In this document: positions 1,819 through 59,118 of the stretch, piece after piece
How positions within the stretch are numbered: the first letter of the stretch is position 1
Layout: each line of letters starts with the position of its first letter
NCBI GenBank assembly: GCA_949294095.1
Contig: CASFFZ010000009.1
Span: 1 to 64,000 of the forward strand
DNA: 64,000 bases
Direction: 5' to 3'
From: an uncultured bacterium
GTDB taxonomy: Bacteria > Elusimicrobiota > Elusimicrobia > Elusimicrobiales > Elusimicrobiaceae
Notes under the pieces: model-generated
What the model saw: the letters and a program-made list of their open reading frames with translations, nothing else
Database searches by the model: none
What the model was told of the DNA's origin: nothing
Translations under genes and position numbers: made by a program

Positions 1819-1824
1819 AGAAGT

Positions 1825-1853
1825 ATTGTACTTATTTTTAGCGGTTTCGCCAA
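1825..1853 (-). promoter_or_regulatory. era promoter (leaderless arrangement)
   Basis: On the minus strand: -35 TTGGCG (1848-1853), 17-bp spacer, -10 TACAAT (1825-1830), then 6 nt to the era ATG. Transcription would start at or within a base or two of the start codon. Confidence 0.65.
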
Positions 1854-1862
1854 CGCACAAAG

Positions 1863-1877
1863 TGCTATACTGATCGT
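1863..1877 (+). promoter_or_regulatory. Extended -10 promoter of the dipeptidase gene
   Basis: TG-C-TATACT (hexamer 1866-1871) lies 6 nt before the ATG at 1878 and no Shine-Dalgarno sequence is present, again predicting a leaderless transcript. It sits 10 bp from the divergent era -35 element. Confidence 0.55.
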
Positions 1878-4892: not shown

Positions 4893-6137
4893 TCAGTTTA
4901 AAGTGATTGTATCTTTTTTAATGGGCACCGGTACATTGGTTTTGCCGTCTTCTTCGTCCGTAAGGCTGCGGCGCATCCGCCAAAAGCCCCACCCGGCCAG
5001 CAGCGCGGCCGCGCCCACAAGCAGCCACGGGCCGGGCAAGTAGTGCGGGGCCACGTAATCGCTCAGCAAGCCCGCCCCGAAAAAGCCGGCTGCGGAACCC
5101 AAATTATAAAAAACCATCAGCATGCCCAAATAGCGCCCGCGCGTTTCGCGCGAAGCGATGTTGGAAACCAGCGTCTGTTCGCCGGGCGACACGATAAGCT
5201 CGCCCAACCCGGCCAAAAATACGCCCAGCGCAATCAGCGTAAAACCGTCAAAAAAACCTACCGAACCAAACCCCACCGCATACAAGGCACATCCGATAAA
5301 CATGGCCGTGGAAAGGCGTATTTTAGACATCAGCCGCGTGGCCCAGTATTGCAAAAATACCACCACCAGCCCGTTAATGGTAAAGAACCAGCCGATGTAA
5401 TACTCCGGCATATGCAAATACTGCTTGCAATGAATGGAAAGCCCCACCACCAGCTGCGAGTTGACGGCCGTAATTACCACCACGTAAAAGCAGATTTTCG
5501 CCAGACGGCTGTCTTTTAAAGAAAGCAAGGCCGAAACGAAGCTGGGCTTTCGGGATTTGCAGAGGGCGTGGTTATCCTGCACTTGGCGGTTTAAATACAA
5601 AATGGTAACGGCATACAAAAGCGCCGTAAAAAAGAAAGCCATACTGTAGGAATAACGCACCAGAAAACCGCCCACCGCCGGGCCCAGCGCCCAGCCGATG
5701 TTAAGCCCGATGCGGATAATGCCAAACGCTTCCACCCGTTCTTTGGGGGTGGTGTTGTCGGTTACCCAGGCGTTGGACGCGGGGCGGAAAAACGCGCCCA
5801 GAAACGTGGTTAAAAAATAACACGCCAGCATCCAGCCCACCTGCACCTTCAGCTCAATGCAAAGCCCCAGCGCAAACATGGCTGCAATCTGGGAAAAAAG
5901 CCCCCACACCATAACGGTTTTGCGGCCAAAAACGTCGGCCAGTTCGCCGCTGATGGCGCTGGATACGCAGCGCGAGAGGCCCGCCAGCGCAATCACCAGC
6001 CCCGCCATAGAAGACGTCAGCCCGCGCTGGGAAATGAGATAAATGGTAAAAAACGGCAGCGACAGCCCATAGCCAAAAAGCAACAGGCCGTTGGCGATGG
6101 CGATAATAATCATGGAGCGGCGGGTTTTGGTTTGCAT
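4893..6137 (-). CDS. Major facilitator superfamily transporter
   Basis: 414-residue inner-membrane transporter with about 12 hydrophobic segments. The loop 2-3 motif GELADVFGRKTVMVWG matches the MFS signature GxLaDrxGrr. The C-terminal tail is charged. The substrate cannot be inferred; the closest general type is a drug or sugar-efflux-like MFS permease. The gene stands alone, 20 nt upstream of the DUF4321-like gene, and may extend that operon. A -10 element TACAAT (6146-6151) lies 8 nt before the ATG and no ribosome site is seen, so the mRNA is probably leaderless or nearly so. Confidence 0.88.
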   Translation of the reverse strand: MQTKTRRSMIIIAIANGLLLFGYGLSLPFFTIYLISQRGLTSSMAGLVIALAGLSRCVSSAISGELADVFGRKTVMVWGLFSQIAAMFALGLCIELKVQVGWMLACYFLTTFLGAFFRPASNAWVTDNTTPKERVEAFGIIRIGLNIGWALGPAVGGFLVRYSYSMAFFFTALLYAVTILYLNRQVQDNHALCKSRKPSFVSALLSLKDSRLAKICFYVVVITAVNSQLVVGLSIHCKQYLHMPEYYIGWFFTINGLVVVFLQYWATRLMSKIRLSTAMFIGCALYAVGFGSVGFFDGFTLIALGVFLAGLGELIVSPGEQTLVSNIASRETRGRYLGMLMVFYNLGSAAGFFGAGLLSDYVAPHYLPGPWLLVGAAALLAGWGFWRMRRSLTDEEDGKTNVPVPIKKDTITLN

Positions 6138-6145
6138 ATATAGAT

Positions 6146-6151
6146 ATTGTA
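6146..6151 (-). promoter_or_regulatory. -10 element of the MFS gene
   Basis: TACAAT on the minus strand, 8 nt before the start codon, with no Shine-Dalgarno sequence between. Confidence 0.45.
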
Positions 6152-17217: not shown

Positions 17218-17718
17218 TCACTCCACCAACACCCACGCTTCTTTATCCGTTCTGATACCGCCTAAAGACTTGCAAAGACGCTCGGCAAATTCTTCAGAAC
17301 CGTAGGCCATATCGGCGGCTCTGCAGATAACAGAAGCCATTCCGTTCTTGCGTCCTTGCGAAAAACGATACGCAAACATATATTTTCGTGAGTCAGGTAC
17401 GTTTACCCTGGTGGCGGATATAGACATAGGTTGCATGTCATATTTCCAGTATTTATTTTGAGGCTCAATCGAAACGTCCAGCTTGCTCAAATCATCTGCA
17501 TAAGATCCATTGCTCAAAAAATAGACTTCCTGTGCGTCGCGCAAGGTTTTTAAAACGGTAAGAGGTTCTGCAGAACGGCTTTTTTCCACAGCCAGCTCAT
17601 ATTGAGGCAAAGCCACGGCTGCCAATATGCCGATAATCAGCACCACGACTAACAATTCTATCAGCGTAAATCCGCCGTTTTGAACGTCGGAAAATATATT
17701 TTGATAACTTTTGCTCAT
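17218..17718 (-). CDS. Type IV pilin-like protein (long leader, hairpin start)
   Basis: 166-residue prepilin. The 16-residue leader MSKSYQNIFSDVQNGG ends at a class-III cleavage site G/FTLIE, followed by the invariant helix LLVVVLIIGILAAVALPQYELAVEKSRS. The head domain carries two well-spaced cysteines in the C-terminal half (VICRAADM, ERLCKSL). The true start is the ATG at 17718; an upstream in-frame TTG lies inside the leader hairpin. No Shine-Dalgarno sequence exists. The ATG sits in the loop of a 30-bp inverted repeat preceded by a T13 tract, the same arrangement as the pilin at 51606-52175. It is convergent with the DUF374 gene, with only 5 nt between them. Confidence 0.9.
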   Translation of the reverse strand: MSKSYQNIFSDVQNGGFTLIELLVVVLIIGILAAVALPQYELAVEKSRSAEPLTVLKTLRDAQEVYFLSNGSYADDLSKLDVSIEPQNKYWKYDMQPMSISATRVNVPDSRKYMFAYRFSQGRKNGMASVICRAADMAYGSEEFAERLCKSLGGIRTDKEAWVLVE

Positions 17719-17755
17719 AAGCAAAAGTTATCAAAAAAAAAAAAACGAGTCAAGG
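17703..17755 (-). promoter_or_regulatory. Pilin leader module A: TTGACT, T13 tract, start-codon hairpin
   Basis: Read on the minus strand: CCTTGACTCG (17746-17755), T13 (17733-17745), then an inverted repeat at 17703-17732 with 12-bp arms GATAACTTTTGC / GCAAAAGTTATC (a 13th T-A pair is possible) and the ATG in its loop. TTGACT resembles a -35 element and GATAAC, at the head of the repeat, a -10 element; the spacing is 15 bp. Confidence 0.7.
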
Positions 17756-17774: not shown

Positions 17775-19325
17775 TTACTTGACCGCCGCAATGGGCTTCG
17801 GCCCGGCAGGCGGCGTTTCCGGCTGATCGGTTATAAACAGCAAACACACGCTTCCTAAATTTCCGTATATGTTCAGATGTTTATTCCACTGGTCTGCCAC
17901 TTTCCGCAATTTCCCTTCTTCGCAATTGGGCATAAAAACAAACGCATCTTTGTTGCGCGCCAGCACCCGTTCCCGTTCCTGCGGGTTCAAATGCACCAAT
18001 TCCGTTACGTCTGCTTTCACGCCATACACTTTATGAATATAATAGCCGTACATGGCCGGCATGGCCCTGGGCGGAAAAGCCTCCACCGCCAAGACCATCA
18101 CTTCACGTCCGCGGAAAAAATCATAATAGAATTGGCTTACCAAGCGCGCCGGAAGCATCGTGGGATTAAGCAACGCTTTGCGCTGGCTCGTAAACGTCCA
18201 CACTTCCGCCACCAGTAACACCAGCAGCACCGCCCGGAAAAGATTGTTTTTCCGCACCACCCGCGCCGTCATAAGAGCCACCCATAAAAACAAAGCGGGC
18301 AAAATGGGGGTAAAATAACGGCCTATAAACAAAAACATCTTAAAAGAGATCAAAGACGTAACGGCCGCCACCGCCAGCACGGCGGTAAGCAGCAGAAGCC
18401 TTTCCCGCGCAAACGGGCACAAACGCCTCCGTACCCGCTGGAGAATCTGCCCGACTGCTCCCCCCGCCACCAACACGGCAAAAGCCGCAATACCCGTGCG
18501 GGAAAAAACAAAAAAACGCAGGCTGGATTTGACCATATACCACGAGGCGTCCTGGTTGGCCCACCAATTGTTTTCTTCAAAACGATGGATCTGCAGCTGG
18601 GCCAAAAAATTGGGAATAATCCACGGCAAAAACAAAAGGCCCGTAATGACGGGAAGCACAATAAACGGTTTCAGCTTTTGCTTGTAACGCCACGCCTGCA
18701 AAAACAGCAAAATATAAAATATGCCTACTAACAAGGTGCCGAAATAGTGGCTCCAAGACAGGAACAAGGCCGCCAACGCATATTTGGCCCACAACGACGC
18801 AGCAATCCGTTTCCCGTGCCAAATTCTGCGCGAAATATCCAAAAACCAAAACGTAAGCAATACGGACAGGAACAACATCAGCGCATAGGCTCTGGCATGC
18901 TGGGAGTACAAAATCATATATTGATGGCACGCCAACAGCGACACAAAAATCAGCCGGGCCGTTTTGCCAAATCTTCTGGGAAACAGCCACCACCCGCACG
19001 CCAACGCCCCTACGCCTAAGATGACACTCGGCAGCCGCAGCCAAAACTCCGGCCCGTACGGCATCCAATGATTATATACCCACAACAATACATTGTGCAG
19101 CGGCGGATGTACATCCGGCACCAGCCAATTGCTCCAGATCCATCCCAGCGAAAGCACGGGATCCGAAGTAACGGCGGTAAACAGCTCGTCGTATTCAAAC
19201 GACATGGAAAACAAGCTAAACCGGCAAATTACCGCAGCGACAATGGCTACAAAAATACATCCCGTTAAAATAAAGCGCAGCACCTTATTTCGGGTAAGAA
19301 ACGAATAAATCTTGGAAATACTCAT
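17775..19325 (-). CDS. GT39-like membrane glycosyltransferase
   Basis: 516-residue polytopic membrane protein of the dolichyl-phosphate-mannose/ArnT-like GT-C superfamily. Features are an acidic first loop with EYDELFTAVTSD, the DVHPPLHNVLLW segment matching the family DxHPPL pattern, an RLPSVILGVGAL helix, and QHARAYALM. About 11-12 membrane helices are followed by a periplasmic C-terminal domain. It probably transfers a sugar from a polyprenyl-phosphate donor to a protein or lipid at the periplasmic face; the acceptor is unknown. TACACT lies 7 nt upstream of the ATG, suggesting a leaderless transcript. Confidence 0.85.
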   Translation of the reverse strand: MSISKIYSFLTRNKVLRFILTGCIFVAIVAAVICRFSLFSMSFEYDELFTAVTSDPVLSLGWIWSNWLVPDVHPPLHNVLLWVYNHWMPYGPEFWLRLPSVILGVGALACGWWLFPRRFGKTARLIFVSLLACHQYMILYSQHARAYALMLFLSVLLTFWFLDISRRIWHGKRIAASLWAKYALAALFLSWSHYFGTLLVGIFYILLFLQAWRYKQKLKPFIVLPVITGLLFLPWIIPNFLAQLQIHRFEENNWWANQDASWYMVKSSLRFFVFSRTGIAAFAVLVAGGAVGQILQRVRRRLCPFARERLLLLTAVLAVAAVTSLISFKMFLFIGRYFTPILPALFLWVALMTARVVRKNNLFRAVLLVLLVAEVWTFTSQRKALLNPTMLPARLVSQFYYDFFRGREVMVLAVEAFPPRAMPAMYGYYIHKVYGVKADVTELVHLNPQERERVLARNKDAFVFMPNCEEGKLRKVADQWNKHLNIYGNLGSVCLLFITDQPETPPAGPKPIAAVK

Positions 19326-22185: not shown

Positions 22186-22773
22186 TTATTTTTTGAGCGG
22201 AAGCACTTCGTCAATTAAGCCGTATTCCTTGGCTTCCTGGGCGGACATATAATAATTGCGCTCGCTGTCGCGGCGGATTTTTTCTTTGTCTTGCCCGGTG
22301 TGTTTGGCCAAAATATCCAGCAGGTGTTCTTTATTGTCGCGCAATTCTTTGGATTCAATTTCAATATCCGTTACCTGGCCGGAAATGCCGCCCCCCCAAA
22401 TTAAAGGCTGGTGAATCATAATGCGCGCATGCGGCAGGGCGTAGCGTTTGCCCTTGGAACCCGCCGCCAGCAACACGGCGCCAAAGCTCATGGCTTGGCC
22501 CATGCAAATGGTGGTAATGGGGGATTTGATAAACTGCATGGTGTCGTAAATAGCCAAGCCGGCCGTAACCAATCCGCCGGGAGAATTGATGTAGAGGTTG
22601 ATTTCCCGGTTGGGGTCGTCCGCGTCCAAGTACAAAAGCTGGGCGATAATCATATTTGCGCTGGCGGTATCCACCTCGCCCTCGCGTCCGCCTACAAAAA
22701 TAATGCGGTCTTTGAGCAGGCGGGAAAAAATATCATATCCGACATTCTTTTCAATAATAGTAGGTATAATCAT
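22186..22773 (-). CDS. clpP: ATP-dependent Clp protease proteolytic subunit
   Basis: 195-residue ClpP, the tetradecameric serine peptidase that works with ClpX or ClpA. The catalytic Ser lies in [11 protein letters not shown] (the family norm is GxAASMGA), the His in ARIMIHQP, and the Asp in the later [21 protein letters not shown] region context. Length is typical. The TACAAT -10 element lies 7 nt before the ATG and there is no ribosome site, so a leaderless transcript is likely. clpX is not adjacent. Confidence 0.96.
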
Positions 22774-22780
22774 ATTCTAC

Positions 22781-22786
22781 ATTGTA
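22781..22786 (-). promoter_or_regulatory. -10 element of clpP
   Basis: TACAAT on the minus strand, 7 nt before the clpP ATG. No convincing -35 element is present. Confidence 0.5.
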
Positions 22787-43686: not shown

Positions 43687-43701
43687 TGCTATGATATGTA
43701 T
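43687..43701 (+). promoter_or_regulatory. kdsA extended -10 promoter
   Basis: TG-C-TATGAT (hexamer 43690-43695) lies 6 nt before the ATG at 43702, with no ribosome site and a weak -35 element. Confidence 0.6.
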
Positions 43702-44529
43702 ATGCAAAAAACAATTAAAATCGGTAACTATAAAATTTCAAACACTTTGCCCTTGGTTTTTATGGCGGGCACCTGCGTCATTGAGAGCGAAAAACATTAC
43801 TTGGACACCGCCAAAAAACTAAAAGCCATCCTGGCCAAAACCAAACACCCCTTTATTTTAAAAGCTTCTTTTGACAAAGCCAACCGCACCTCGGTAGACG
43901 CTTACCGCGGCCCCGGCCTTGCCAAAGGGCTGGAAATTTTAACCAAAGCCAAAGCCCTTACCGGGCTGCCGCTGGTGGTGGACGTGCACGAACCGTGGCA
44001 GGCCGAAGAAGTGGCCCAAGTGGCCGATATTTTGCAAATTCCCGCTTTTCTGTGCCGCCAGACCGACCTGGTGCTGGCCTGCGCCGATACCGGACGCGCG
44101 GTAAACGTAAAAAAAGGCCAGTTTTTGGCGCCGGGAGCGATGGAACAAGTCATCAAAAAAATAGAATCGCGCGGCAACCATAAAATTTTACTCACGGAAC
44201 GCGGCGCCAGCTTTGGCTACGGCGACTTGGTGGTGGATATGCGCTCGCTGGAAATTATGAAACAGTTTGGCTATCCCGTTATTTTTGACGCCACCCATTC
44301 CGTCCAAAAACCAGGCGCCCTGGGCTGCGCCACCGGCGGCAACCGCCAGCTGGCGCCGGTGCTGGCCAAGGCGGCCGCGGCGCTGGGAATTGCCGGCGTA
44401 TTTTTTGAAGCGCATCCGGATCCGGATCATGCCCTTTCCGACGGCCCGAACTCGTTAAATTTAGAGATGGCCGCCAAAATGGCGCGCCAGCTGTGCGCCA
44501 TTGACCAAGTAGTCAAAAAATTTAAATAA
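43702..44529 (+). CDS. kdsA: 3-deoxy-8-phosphooctulonate synthase
   Basis: 275-residue KDO-8-phosphate synthase that condenses phosphoenolpyruvate with arabinose-5-phosphate. Motifs include AGTCVIES, KASFDKANRTSVDAYRGPG, DVHEPWQ, IPAFLCRQTDL and VIFDATHSVQKPG. Cys14 in GTCVIES indicates the metal-dependent class, in which a Cys binds the metal, unlike the Asn of the E. coli type. The in-frame ATG at 43696 abuts the -10 element, so I place the start at 43702. It is first in an operon for KDO and LPS export. Confidence 0.95.
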   Translation: MQKTIKIGNYKISNTLPLVFMAGTCVIESEKHYLDTAKKLKAILAKTKHPFILKASFDKANRTSVDAYRGPGLAKGLEILTKAKALTGLPLVVDVHEPWQAEEVAQVADILQIPAFLCRQTDLVLACADTGRAVNVKKGQFLAPGAMEQVIKKIESRGNHKILLTERGASFGYGDLVVDMRSLEIMKQFGYPVIFDATHSVQKPGALGCATGGNRQLAPVLAKAAAALGIAGVFFEAHPDPDHALSDGPNSLNLEMAAKMARQLCAIDQVVKKFK

Positions 44530-51147: not shown

Positions 51148-51609
51148 ATGAACAAGGCATTTACATTAATTGAATTATTGGTGGTAGTTTTAATTATCGG
51201 GATTTTATCTTCTATTGCAATTCCGTATTATTTTAACGCCGTGGAAAGCGCCCGGATGACGGAGGTCGTCATGCTGTGGGGCCGGCAAAAAAACTACGTA
51301 ACCGGCAAAGACTTGACCCAGGAACAGGCCGACCGACTGACGGAGCGGCTGCAAAAAGCCAACCTTAAAAATTACACCGGGTATGCGTACTGCCGCACCA
51401 AAGACGACGCAAACGAACCCTGCTGGGAAGCGGTCTTCACGCAGACGGATCCCGACGCCCACGCCCGCTACAAACTGACCACTACCCGCAATTTTCTGAG
51501 CTTGGCCTGCGTGGGGCTTAACCAAGCCGGGAAAGAATTTTGTGAAAGCCAGGCCGGGCCCGAAGAACCTATTACCTTGGACGGCGAAGAAGCCTACCTG
51601 ATTCGCTAG
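51148..51609 (+). CDS. Type IV pilin-like protein (short leader, Ala at -1)
   Basis: 153-residue prepilin with leader MNKA/FTLIELLVVVLIIGILSSIAIPYYFNAVESARM. The residue before the cleavage site is Ala where Gly is usual, which could slow or alter processing. Cysteines are present in the head. It overlaps the convergent pilin gene by 4 bp (CTAG). No Shine-Dalgarno sequence is obvious, so it may be coupled to the SUI1 gene 15 nt upstream. Confidence 0.88.
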   Translation: MNKAFTLIELLVVVLIIGILSSIAIPYYFNAVESARMTEVVMLWGRQKNYVTGKDLTQEQADRLTERLQKANLKNYTGYAYCRTKDDANEPCWEAVFTQTDPDAHARYKLTTTRNFLSLACVGLNQAGKEFCESQAGPEEPITLDGEEAYLIR

Positions 51610-52175
51610 TCGGGCAAACAATACGCCTGCTCTGCATCGGGATACCACCCGCTGTATGCCCCACACGCGACACCGCCCCAAGCTTGGCATTGCTGGATGC
51701 CCTTCTCGGCTTCGGATTTTCTAGGAAAACAAATACGACGCCCAGGCGTTATGGAAGAACGGTCTAACTGCCATTGCCACCTCAACCACGGGTTGTCATT
51801 TTCCGTTGCTACTACCGCATAATAAGTAGGATTACTGAAATTTACCATAGACAAAGAAATCCGTACTTCCATTCCGTTTATAGTGCATTTTGCCGTTTGA
51901 CCAGATATTTGACAGGAAGAGGGTAAGGAAACATCCAAGGCGTCAAAATCAAGCGTGTATTCCCCATTTGCCAAAAAATACTGTTCTTCCGCATTTTTGA
52001 CCGCGCGCAACAACGTAAACGTGTTGGCGGTACGGCTTTTGCGCACGGCTTTTTCGTATTGCGGCAAGGCAACCGCCGCTAGAATACCAATAATTAAAAC
52101 AACTACTAGTAACTCTATAAGCGTAAATCCGGCGTTTTTATCCCCAGAGAATGATTTTTGATAAATTTTGTTCAT
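51606..52175 (-). CDS. Type IV pilin-like protein (long leader, hairpin start)
   Basis: 189-residue prepilin. The 16-residue leader MNKIYQKSFSGDKNAG is homologous to that of the pilin at 17218-17718 and is followed by FTLIELLVVVLIIGILAAVALPQYEKAVRKSRT. The head contains several cysteines (SCQISGQTAKC). The ATG at 52175 is in the loop of an inverted repeat; an upstream in-frame TTG is inside the same repeat. No ribosome site. Convergent with the other pilin. Confidence 0.9.
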   Translation of the reverse strand: MNKIYQKSFSGDKNAGFTLIELLVVVLIIGILAAVALPQYEKAVRKSRTANTFTLLRAVKNAEEQYFLANGEYTLDFDALDVSLPSSCQISGQTAKCTINGMEVRISLSMVNFSNPTYYAVVATENDNPWLRWQWQLDRSSITPGRRICFPRKSEAEKGIQQCQAWGGVACGAYSGWYPDAEQAYCLPD

Positions 52176-52210
52176 AGACAAAATTTATCAAAAAAAAAAA
52201 CGAGTCAAGG
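52160..52210 (-). promoter_or_regulatory. Pilin leader module B: TTGACT, T11 tract, start-codon hairpin
   Basis: On the minus strand: CCTTGACTCG (52201-52210), T11 (52190-52200), inverted repeat 52160-52189 with 12-bp arms GATAAATTTTGT / ACAAAATTTATC and the ATG in its loop. It matches module A, but the tract is two T shorter and the arms carry two compensated changes. Confidence 0.7.
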
Positions 52211-56928: not shown

Positions 56929-59103
56929 TTATTTAATTGTTCCTGTGGTGGTATCCAAGATGCGGGCCTGCGGAAAGTAATACTTGATAATTGCCATATA
57001 GTCCGCGCCTTGTTTGGCTAAACCGTCCGCCCCCTGCAGGCAAAGCCCGTATCCAAGCCCCGTGTCATAACCGCGCACCAAGACGCTTTTGATATTTTTG
57101 CCCTTATAAAACGGCACTATATCAAACAGGTTGGAGCGCATCGTGCCCGCGCTTAAAATAAACGCGACCTCCTGCGGGGTTTTGGCTTCGTACGAGCCTT
57201 TGCTGCCTTCAAACCGCATGGACAAAATGCGCCCCTTTTCCGTAAACGAAGTAGGCGTAATCGCGCGCAGTTTGCCGATGTTTTGTTTGTAGGCGATGCG
57301 GTTTTCTATCTCTTTTCCATCGTACAAATACATCCACTTAATGCCGGCCCATTGGGTCGGATCCTGCGGGCGGGAGTACAAATCCGCCGGCGGGTTGGAA
57401 AGCAGGTATTTGCTGACGTTGGCGGGCGAGAAAATATAGCCCGGTGTATCCGCCGTGTTTTCCAAGGAGTCCGCGGTCAGAACCCCGCAGTCGGCATAGG
57501 CGCCGGCCTGGGCTTCGGTCAGGCGGATTTGAGCGGATTCTTTGGATGCGTCTAACAAATTTTTAAAAATCAGGTTGATGCCTTTAAATTTAAAATGCAG
57601 GTCGTTATCGGTAATGTGATAGGGCTGATCCTGATGATCTTTGACCGCCTGCAGCAGGGCCGAGCGGAACACCACCGCAAGCGCCTTGAGGGCGGAATCG
57701 TGGGTAATGTCCTGCACTTGGGTGGCCAGCAAGGCGGGGATTAAATCTTCGGCATATACTTCGTTTACAAGTTTAATGCCCTGCGGCGTGGGAATGACGA
57801 TCAGGGTGCCTTTTAATTCTTTGTCGCTTAGATCCGCCGCAAAAATGTTTTGGGCGGTGGCTTCGCGCACCAGAAGCGTTTTGTTGGGGTTTTCCACCGT
57901 AACGGTGAAAGGACGCTTGGCCGAAAATTCCACATGGCCTTTATCGTTGGTAAAGTCCACCCCGCCCGTCTGCGGGTTAAAAACGATCGTTTTTTGAATG
58001 TAAGAAGGCGAGCGCAGCACTTCCCCCAGTTTTTCATCTTCCACCCGCATGGTGCCCGAAGGCATCAGCGAAAAAGAAAGCAACTCCTGCGGGATTTGTT
58101 CGCGGTTGGCGTAAAGCGCCATTTTTACTTTTTCGGAAGGGGTGGAAAACATCTCGTGCACAATGGGCTGCTCCAAGCGCAGGTAAAACAGATAGTCAAT
58201 GCTTTTATCGCCCAGTTTTTTGGCGTATTTGTCAATTTTTTTGGCGAGGTCTTTATTATCGGGATCCAGGCTGTAGAGGGTGGCGTAATACTGCCAGGCG
58301 CGCAGGTCGTTTTTTTCTTTTTCGGACAGTTGGGCAAACAATTCCACCGCCGCATAATTGCGCGCGTCATGCGTCAGCGATTGCTGCAAAAACACCGGCG
58401 CCAGCTTGCGCGAAGATTTCATTTCCGACGCGATCCGCCCCAGCATATACGATACAAAAGAAATGGTGTAGGGATTAGAAGTGTAGAGATACTGCAGCTC
58501 GGTGGCGGCTTTTTCTTTGTCGCCGTCCAAATACCACGCCAGCGCCGTGCCCAGCTTGGCGGAAGAAACGTACTCAAAATCGGCCGTCAGGTACAGCAAG
58601 TCCTGAAACGATTGACGGGCTTTTTTATATTTGCCCGAAGAAAGCAAAATCCACCCGCGCGTCAGTTCGGCAAAGGGATCGTCGGGGTTAAAAGCGCAGG
58701 CTTGGTCTATATATTTAACGGCCTGTTTGACCAGCCCCCGCTGCAAGGAAAGCACCGCCAACTCCAAATTGGCCGCGGCCGCCGTTTTGGCGTCGGGCGC
58801 GTTTTCAAACGTTTTAAAAGAAAAGTAACATTCGTCTATTTCGCCCGCCGCGCATTTTTTGGCTACGGCCGCAATGTCTGCCGGCAAATAATAGTCCAGC
58901 ACGCTTTTATGCAGTACGGTTTCGTTTAATTTGCTGTCCACCCGCGTAGCCGCCAGCGTGGATTTGCTGACCGTTTGTGCCGCTGGTTCTTGCGCCGCGG
59001 CAACCGCCCCAGAAGACGCAACGTCCCCCGTGGCGCAAAAAGCAAAACCCGGCAGCCCGAAAGCCGACCCTAAAAACACGGATAAAAGCAAACATTTCTT
59101 CAT
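56929..59103 (-). CDS. Exported TPR protein with degenerate SpoIID/LytB-like domain
   Basis: 724-residue protein with a signal peptide (MKKCLLLSVFLGSAFGLPGFAFC). A TPR-rich N-terminal half (LELAVLSLQRGLVKQAVKYIDQACAFNPDDPFAELTRGWILLSSGKYKKARQSF) is followed by a C-terminal region resembling the SpoIID fold: VNEVYAEDLIPALLATQV...ALKALAVVFRSALLQAV and RGYDTGLGYGLCLQGADGLAKQGADYMAIIKYYFPQA. In SpoIID the first segment carries the catalytic Glu (xPSEM). Here TQV replaces it, and GHGVGLSQ has become LGYGLCLQ, so glycan-cleaving activity is doubtful. The promoter is 6 nt before the ATG, so leaderless is likely. First gene of a five-gene operon. Confidence 0.78.
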   Translation of the reverse strand: MKKCLLLSVFLGSAFGLPGFAFCATGDVASSGAVAAAQEPAAQTVSKSTLAATRVDSKLNETVLHKSVLDYYLPADIAAVAKKCAAGEIDECYFSFKTFENAPDAKTAAAANLELAVLSLQRGLVKQAVKYIDQACAFNPDDPFAELTRGWILLSSGKYKKARQSFQDLLYLTADFEYVSSAKLGTALAWYLDGDKEKAATELQYLYTSNPYTISFVSYMLGRIASEMKSSRKLAPVFLQQSLTHDARNYAAVELFAQLSEKEKNDLRAWQYYATLYSLDPDNKDLAKKIDKYAKKLGDKSIDYLFYLRLEQPIVHEMFSTPSEKVKMALYANREQIPQELLSFSLMPSGTMRVEDEKLGEVLRSPSYIQKTIVFNPQTGGVDFTNDKGHVEFSAKRPFTVTVENPNKTLLVREATAQNIFAADLSDKELKGTLIVIPTPQGIKLVNEVYAEDLIPALLATQVQDITHDSALKALAVVFRSALLQAVKDHQDQPYHITDNDLHFKFKGINLIFKNLLDASKESAQIRLTEAQAGAYADCGVLTADSLENTADTPGYIFSPANVSKYLLSNPPADLYSRPQDPTQWAGIKWMYLYDGKEIENRIAYKQNIGKLRAITPTSFTEKGRILSMRFEGSKGSYEAKTPQEVAFILSAGTMRSNLFDIVPFYKGKNIKSVLVRGYDTGLGYGLCLQGADGLAKQGADYMAIIKYYFPQARILDTTTGTIK

Positions 59104-59109
59104 ATACAA

Positions 59110-59118
59110 ATTATACCA
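59110..59118 (-). promoter_or_regulatory. Promoter of the TPR/GT4/acyl-CoA dehydrogenase operon
   Basis: Extended -10 TG-G-TATAAT (hexamer 59110-59115) on the minus strand, 6 nt before the ATG at 59103, with no ribosome site. Confidence 0.6.

What the first reader, a model, noticed from the sequence alone, without database searches (positions are those of the whole stretch)
1825..1877. First-in-operon genes appear leaderless across the window
A -10 element lies 6-8 nt before the ATG, without a Shine-Dalgarno site, at era (TACAAT, 6 nt), the dipeptidase gene (TATACT, 6), kdsA (TATGAT, 6), the TPR gene at 59103 (TATAAT, 6), clpP (TACAAT, 7), the GT39-like gene (TACACT, 7) and the MFS gene (TACAAT, 8). 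Three of them have extended -10 elements (TGn). Internal operon genes (yajC, pilQ, pilO, etfB, SUI1) have good ribosome sites. A two-mode translation system is predicted.
Basis: partly seen in the sequence, partly recalled or inferred. Interest (0 to 1): 0.66.

Follow-up and report, generated by a model that had tools for sequence, protein, structure and literature searches.

The report
Leaderless genes in gut Elusimicrobia
In this gut bacterium (phylum Elusimicrobiota) about one in six genes that open a transcription unit carries its promoter directly against the start codon, so its messenger RNA should begin at the start codon itself; this way of starting genes is known elsewhere, but I found no report of it in this phylum.

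Summary
All seven sites are present as described (era -10 at 1830-1825, dipeptidase -10 at 1866-1871, and five more). In 346 kb of the same genome outside the window, 22 of 128 unit-opening genes (pilin family left out) have TA[ACT]A[ACT]T 6-8 nt before the start; 4 are expected (p = 8e-11). Genes inside operons have 0 of 165, E. coli 0 of 132. The extended -10 (TGnTANANT) piles up at exactly 6 nt (18 cases in three genomes of the genus), with none at 10-14 nt. These genes lack Shine-Dalgarno sites, lack a second upstream -10, and all start with ATG. The geometry is conserved across the genus (era 18/18, kdsA 21/21). clpP gives a natural experiment: 12 species have the adjacent -10 and no SD; the others have a -10 about 25-35 nt upstream plus an SD-like site. 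The 16S anti-SD is intact in relatives. So two start modes coexist. The title overstates: only about 15-20% of unit-opening genes are leaderless. The trait is strong in the genus, weaker in its family and order, and not detected in other classes. Kind known; taxon apparently unreported. Bonus: a dispersed pilin family with poly-T leaderless promoters.

The parts
1819..1830 (-). era (907-1818): -10 TACAAT at 1830-1825, 6 nt ACTTCT to ATG 1818; no SD
   Evidence: conserved at 6-7 nt in 18/18 genus orthologues
1866..1877 (+). M15 D-Ala-D-Ala dipeptidase (1878-2504): extended -10 TGcTATACT, 6 nt to ATG 1878
   Evidence: Pfam PF01427; same kind of geometry (5-6 nt) in 8 of 9 genus orthologues held
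6138..6151 (-). MFS transporter (4893-6137): -10 TACAAT, 8 nt to ATG
   Evidence: orthologue upstream DNA not obtained
17719..17753 (-). pilin-like gene (17218-17718): -35 TTGACT 17753-17748, 17-bp spacer with T13, extended -10 TGATAACTT, 6 nt to ATG
   Evidence: Pfam N_methyl/Pilin_GH
22774..22786 (-). clpP (22186-22773): -10 TACAAT, 7 nt to ATG; no SD
   Evidence: 12 genus species share it, others have a leader with an SD-like site
43690..43701 (+). kdsA (43702-44529): extended -10 TTTGcTATGAT, 6 nt to ATG 43702
   Evidence: 21/21 genus orthologues at 6-9 nt
52176..52208 (-). second pilin-like gene (51606-52175): -35 TTGACT, 15-bp spacer with T11, extended -10 TGATAAATT, 6 nt to ATG
59104..59115 (-). 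TPR/SpoIID-domain gene (56929-59103): extended -10 TTTGgTATAAT, 6 nt to ATG
   Evidence: seen in 21 of 23 genus orthologues, 2 unresolved

Best explanation
The genome uses two gene-start modes side by side. In roughly 15-20% of genes that open a transcription unit, a sigma-70-type promoter, often an extended -10 of the form AATTTGnTATAAT with little or no -35, lies so that transcription starts at the A of the ATG; the leaderless mRNA is then read by ribosomes that recognise the 5' AUG without an SD site. Operon-internal genes and other unit-opening genes use leaders and SD sites paired with the intact CCUCC of 16S rRNA. Shown here: motif, spacing, position in transcription units, exclusion of SD, conservation across species, intact anti-SD in relatives. 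Inferred: the transcription start, sigma factor use, and translation by 5' AUG recognition.
For: Peak at 6-8 nt: 27/152 unit-opening genes (no pilins) against 4.7 expected, p=2e-13; 22/128 outside the window, p=8e-11; 0/165 internal genes; E. coli 0/132. Extended -10: 18 at exactly 6 nt, 25 at 5-9, none at 10-14, none of the 25 with SD>=5. -10 and SD exclude each other: 2/35 against 54/123, p=1e-5; PWM version p=7e-8. Genes with an adjacent -10 rarely have another strong -10 (TA[CT]AAT) 15-60 nt upstream: 2/48 against 65/206, p=4e-5; base -1 is T in 46/48. All 51 start with ATG against 213/239 of the rest, p=0.012. Conserved geometry: era 18/18, kdsA 21/21, TPR 21/23. clpP: adjacent -10 without SD in 12 species, distant -10 with an SD-like site in the other clade. 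Anti-SD CCTCC present in four relatives read.
Against: No transcript data. Leaders of 1-3 nt cannot be told from zero. Gene calls are my own (start choice blind to -10 and SD). Weaker family-level p-values (about 0.01-0.02) are uncorrected for 12 genomes tested. Only about a quarter of the own genome was sampled.
Confidence: 0.9

Rival explanations
1. The motif next to the ATG is an AT-rich translation element (for example an S1 binding site, as discussed for non-SD genes in several phyla) and not a promoter; transcription starts further upstream.
For: AT-rich biases before starts are ambiguous between Pribnow box and S1 site in other phyla (PMC5397173); an S1-like protein is present, although a short form below the curated cut-off.
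Against: The signal is a precise hexamer with TGn and fixed spacing, is absent from operon-internal genes, and these genes lack the upstream -10 that other unit-opening genes have. In kdsA, DNA upstream of the extended -10 is visibly not conserved.
Confidence: 0.05
2. Start codons are misassigned; the true starts lie downstream with normal leaders.
For: Start prediction is error-prone, and clades differ in leaderless use (PMC9581028); kdsA shows an ambiguous upstream ATG.
Against: N-terminal sequence and the ATG itself are conserved across 18-21 species for era and kdsA; clpP starts at the same MIIPTIIE in leaderless and leadered species.
Confidence: 0.03
3. Chance -10-like hexamers in AT-rich upstream DNA.
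For: The motif occurs at about 1.5 per position in 158 unit-opening genes.
Confidence: 0.01

Closest known systems
Leaderless TA-led genes of bacteria (Zheng et al. 2011, PMC3160421)
   Same: -10-like TANNNT just upstream of the start; leaderless limited to proximal genes, distal genes SD-led; a TG peak before the box in some genomes.
   Different: Their 953 genomes gave leaderless genes in a list of phyla that does not name Elusimicrobia (one unclassified genome is included).
-10-motif-adjacent ORFs of Deinococcus-Thermus (Zhong et al. 2025, PMC12340547)
   Same: -10 a few bp before the ORF, leaderless mRNA, coexisting RBS genes.
   Different: About 30% of ORFs there; here about 15-20% of unit-opening genes. 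Experimentally tested there, not here.
Leaderless transcripts in gut bacteria (Akkermansia, Bifidobacterium; Cappable-seq, PMC4782308)
   Same: Leaderless starts at 10-15% of mapped starts in gut species.
   Different: Measured there; Elusimicrobiota not among the four species analysed.

Membership tests
Bacterial leaderless (-10-adjacent) genes | -10 element 6-8 nt before the start codon above background | tested here: met
   control
Bacterial leaderless (-10-adjacent) genes | No Shine-Dalgarno site | tested here: met
Bacterial leaderless (-10-adjacent) genes | Confined to single or proximal genes; SD-led genes elsewhere with anti-SD intact | tested here: met
   0/165 internal genes; SD at checked internal genes; CCTCC in 16S of relatives (own 16S missing from the assembly)
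Bacterial leaderless (-10-adjacent) genes | AUG start codon | tested here: met
   51/51 ATG
Bacterial leaderless (-10-adjacent) genes | Primary transcript 5' end at the start codon | not testable with these tools
   needs transcription start mapping
Bacterial leaderless (-10-adjacent) genes | Translation from a 5' AUG without leader | not testable with these tools
   needs reporter or ribosome profiling

The most novel reading that the evidence does not exclude
The pilin-like genes of this genus form a dispersed family in which one near-identical leaderless promoter with a slippage-prone T-tract as its -35/-10 spacer (mostly T12, range 8-14) sits at each copy, making piliation a combinatorial, phase-variable trait switched by homopolymer length, with an inverted repeat over the start codon blocking translation of read-through RNA.
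Probability: 0.15. Interest if true: 0.65.

Novelty: new member of a known kind. Interest (0 to 1): 0.42.

Why it matters
It adds what looks like an unreported phylum to the bacteria that use leaderless genes widely, which bears on gene-start annotation of gut Elusimicrobiota MAGs and on the claim that leaderless starts are relics. Within one genus clpP, a housekeeping gene, exists in both modes, so gain or loss of a leader plus SD can be followed step by step in close relatives. That makes the evolution of initiation modes directly testable.

Tried and rejected
A PWM score (threshold 4 bits) finds more candidates (44/158) but its background is high, so the strict hexamer was used for estimates. 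A consensus -35 search gave only a faint rise at 17 bp. A per-column conservation script matched wrong places for era and kdsA and was discarded; one search was used. Chance, misassigned starts and an S1-type element were considered and rejected as main explanations. Covariation in the pilin inverted repeat: 10.67 pairs against 10.25 in shuffles (3/2000), too small and open to shared descent to build on.

Full report
What the window is. It is C9:1-64000 of a 1.48 Mb, 13-contig genome. Its ClpP is 91-93% identical to that of Elusimicrobiaceae/Elusimicrobiales MAGs from sheep and buffalo colon and another sample, so it is most likely a gut-associated member of the Elusimicrobiota. GC is 52%.

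The seven sites. Each of the seven reported -10/ATG pairs is present with the stated hexamer and spacing. The finding's coordinates 1825-1877 are the 59-bp divergent region that holds two of them back to back: era on the minus strand and the M15 dipeptidase on the plus strand. For kdsA the spacing refers to the ATG at 43702, which all 21 genus orthologues support.

Chance. I called genes with a coding-potential model whose start choice ignores -10 and SD signals, in 410 kb of the own genome including the window. In unit-opening genes (divergent neighbour, or 40 nt or more to the gene upstream) TA[ACT]A[ACT]T peaks sharply at 6 nt (21 genes), then 7 (7) and 8 (4), over a background of 1.5 per position. 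Outside the window and without the pilin family, 22 of 128 genes have it at 6-8 nt against 4.0 expected, p=8e-11; operon-internal genes 0 of 165. E. coli, same pipeline and similar GC: 0 of 132. About 15-20% of unit-opening genes carry the signal, so the statement that first-in-operon genes are leaderless is too broad.

Two modes. Pooled over three genomes of the genus, the extended -10 TGnTANANT occurs 25 times at 5-9 nt (18 at exactly 6), never at 10-14, then spread from 15 to 110 nt; none of the 25 has an SD of 5 or more matching bases. A strict -10 and an SD exclude each other (2/35 against 54/123, p=1e-5). Genes with the adjacent -10 rarely have another strong -10 15-60 nt upstream (2/48 against 65/206 with TA[CT]AAT, p=4e-5), as expected if the adjacent element is the promoter. 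All 51 start with ATG and base -1 is T in 46 of 48. The aligned set shows T and G at -3 and -2 before the hexamer in 66% and 59%, an A/T-rich stretch before that, and only a faint -35. A spacing of 6 puts the A of ATG at +1 of a sigma-70 promoter (established promoter geometry).

Conservation. era: 18/18 genus members keep TACAAT/TATAAT 6-7 nt from the ATG; in the sister family era has no such element and appears to follow directly on an upstream gene. kdsA: 21/21, with AATTTGcTATGAT-like sequence kept while DNA further upstream differs. TPR gene: 21 of 23 visible. clpP splits the genus: 12 species have the -10 at 6-8 nt and no SD; the other clade has TATAAT about 25-35 nt upstream and an SD-like site (GGAGA, GGGAG and the like); the sister family has strong SD sites. 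The protein start MIIPTIIE is the same in both, which argues against misassigned starts.

Extent. Strict signal at 6-8 nt in unit-opening genes: genus 18%, 18%, 17% (G000, G049, G063; p 2e-13, 2e-8, 3e-6); other genera of the family 10% and 11% (p about 0.01-0.02); sister family 9% in G025 (p=1e-5) and 3% in G028 (not significant); no signal in four genomes outside the class (G102, G052, G047, G066). These are single-sample p-values over 54-152 genes each. The 16S 3' end reads GGATCACCTCCTTTA in four genus members. An S1-like protein of about 400 aa, below the curated cut-off, is present throughout the genus.

Literature. Zheng et al. 2011 name the phyla in which their method found leaderless genes; Elusimicrobia is not among them. 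Zhong et al. 2025 describe the same architecture in Deinococcus-Thermus with experiments. Cappable-seq found 10-15% leaderless starts in two gut species. Searches for leaderless with Elusimicrobia names gave no paper on the subject; the library lacks most subscription papers and supplementary files were out of reach, so a table in a genome-scale survey could hold it already.

A related discovery. Among the leaderless promoters a near-identical cassette recurs: TTGACTCG-T(8-13)-GATAAATTTTGC-AT-ATG, 20 times in the own genome, nearly always before genes for type IV pilin-like proteins (GFTLIELLVVVLIIGILAA), two of them in the window. The T-tract is the spacer between -35 TTGACT and extended -10; T12 gives 16 bp and is the commonest length across 18 of 37 genus genomes, with 8-14 also seen. 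Some family members have the same promoter but a leader, and at least one then has a strong SD (AGGGGGGAGGTG; L149). Phase variation is possible but unproven: lengths differ between paralogues, yet assembly errors at homopolymers could do the same, and two copies are frameshifted at A-runs.

Noticed in passing
window 17719-17753 (-) and 52176-52208 (-); L130-L149: Dispersed family of about 20 pilin-like genes with a near-identical leaderless promoter whose -35/-10 spacer is a T-tract of 8-13 (mode T12); up to 37 copies in another species of the genus (G144). Possible phase-variable promoter.
   Followed up: partly
L130-L149; window 17702-17732 (-): Inverted repeat TGATAAATTTTGC..GCAAAATTTATCA spans the -10, the start codon and codons 2-6 of the pilin genes, with some compensatory differences between copies. 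It could sequester the start codon in read-through RNA but not in the leaderless mRNA.
   Followed up: partly
G000 contig C1: All 10 pilin cassettes on the 527-kb contig C1 lie on the same strand.
   Followed up: no
L138, L143: Two pilin copies are frameshifted by loss of one A in an A-run shortly after the start: decay, switching or assembly error.
   Followed up: no
G000:C10:164223-165236: The S1 homologue is a short form (about 400 aa, matching positions 5-347 of 516), seen across the genus.
   Followed up: no
window 17775-19325 (-): Leaderless gene with no Pfam hit, found in only 15 of 25 genus genomes searched and diverging fast (61% to the nearest).
   Followed up: no
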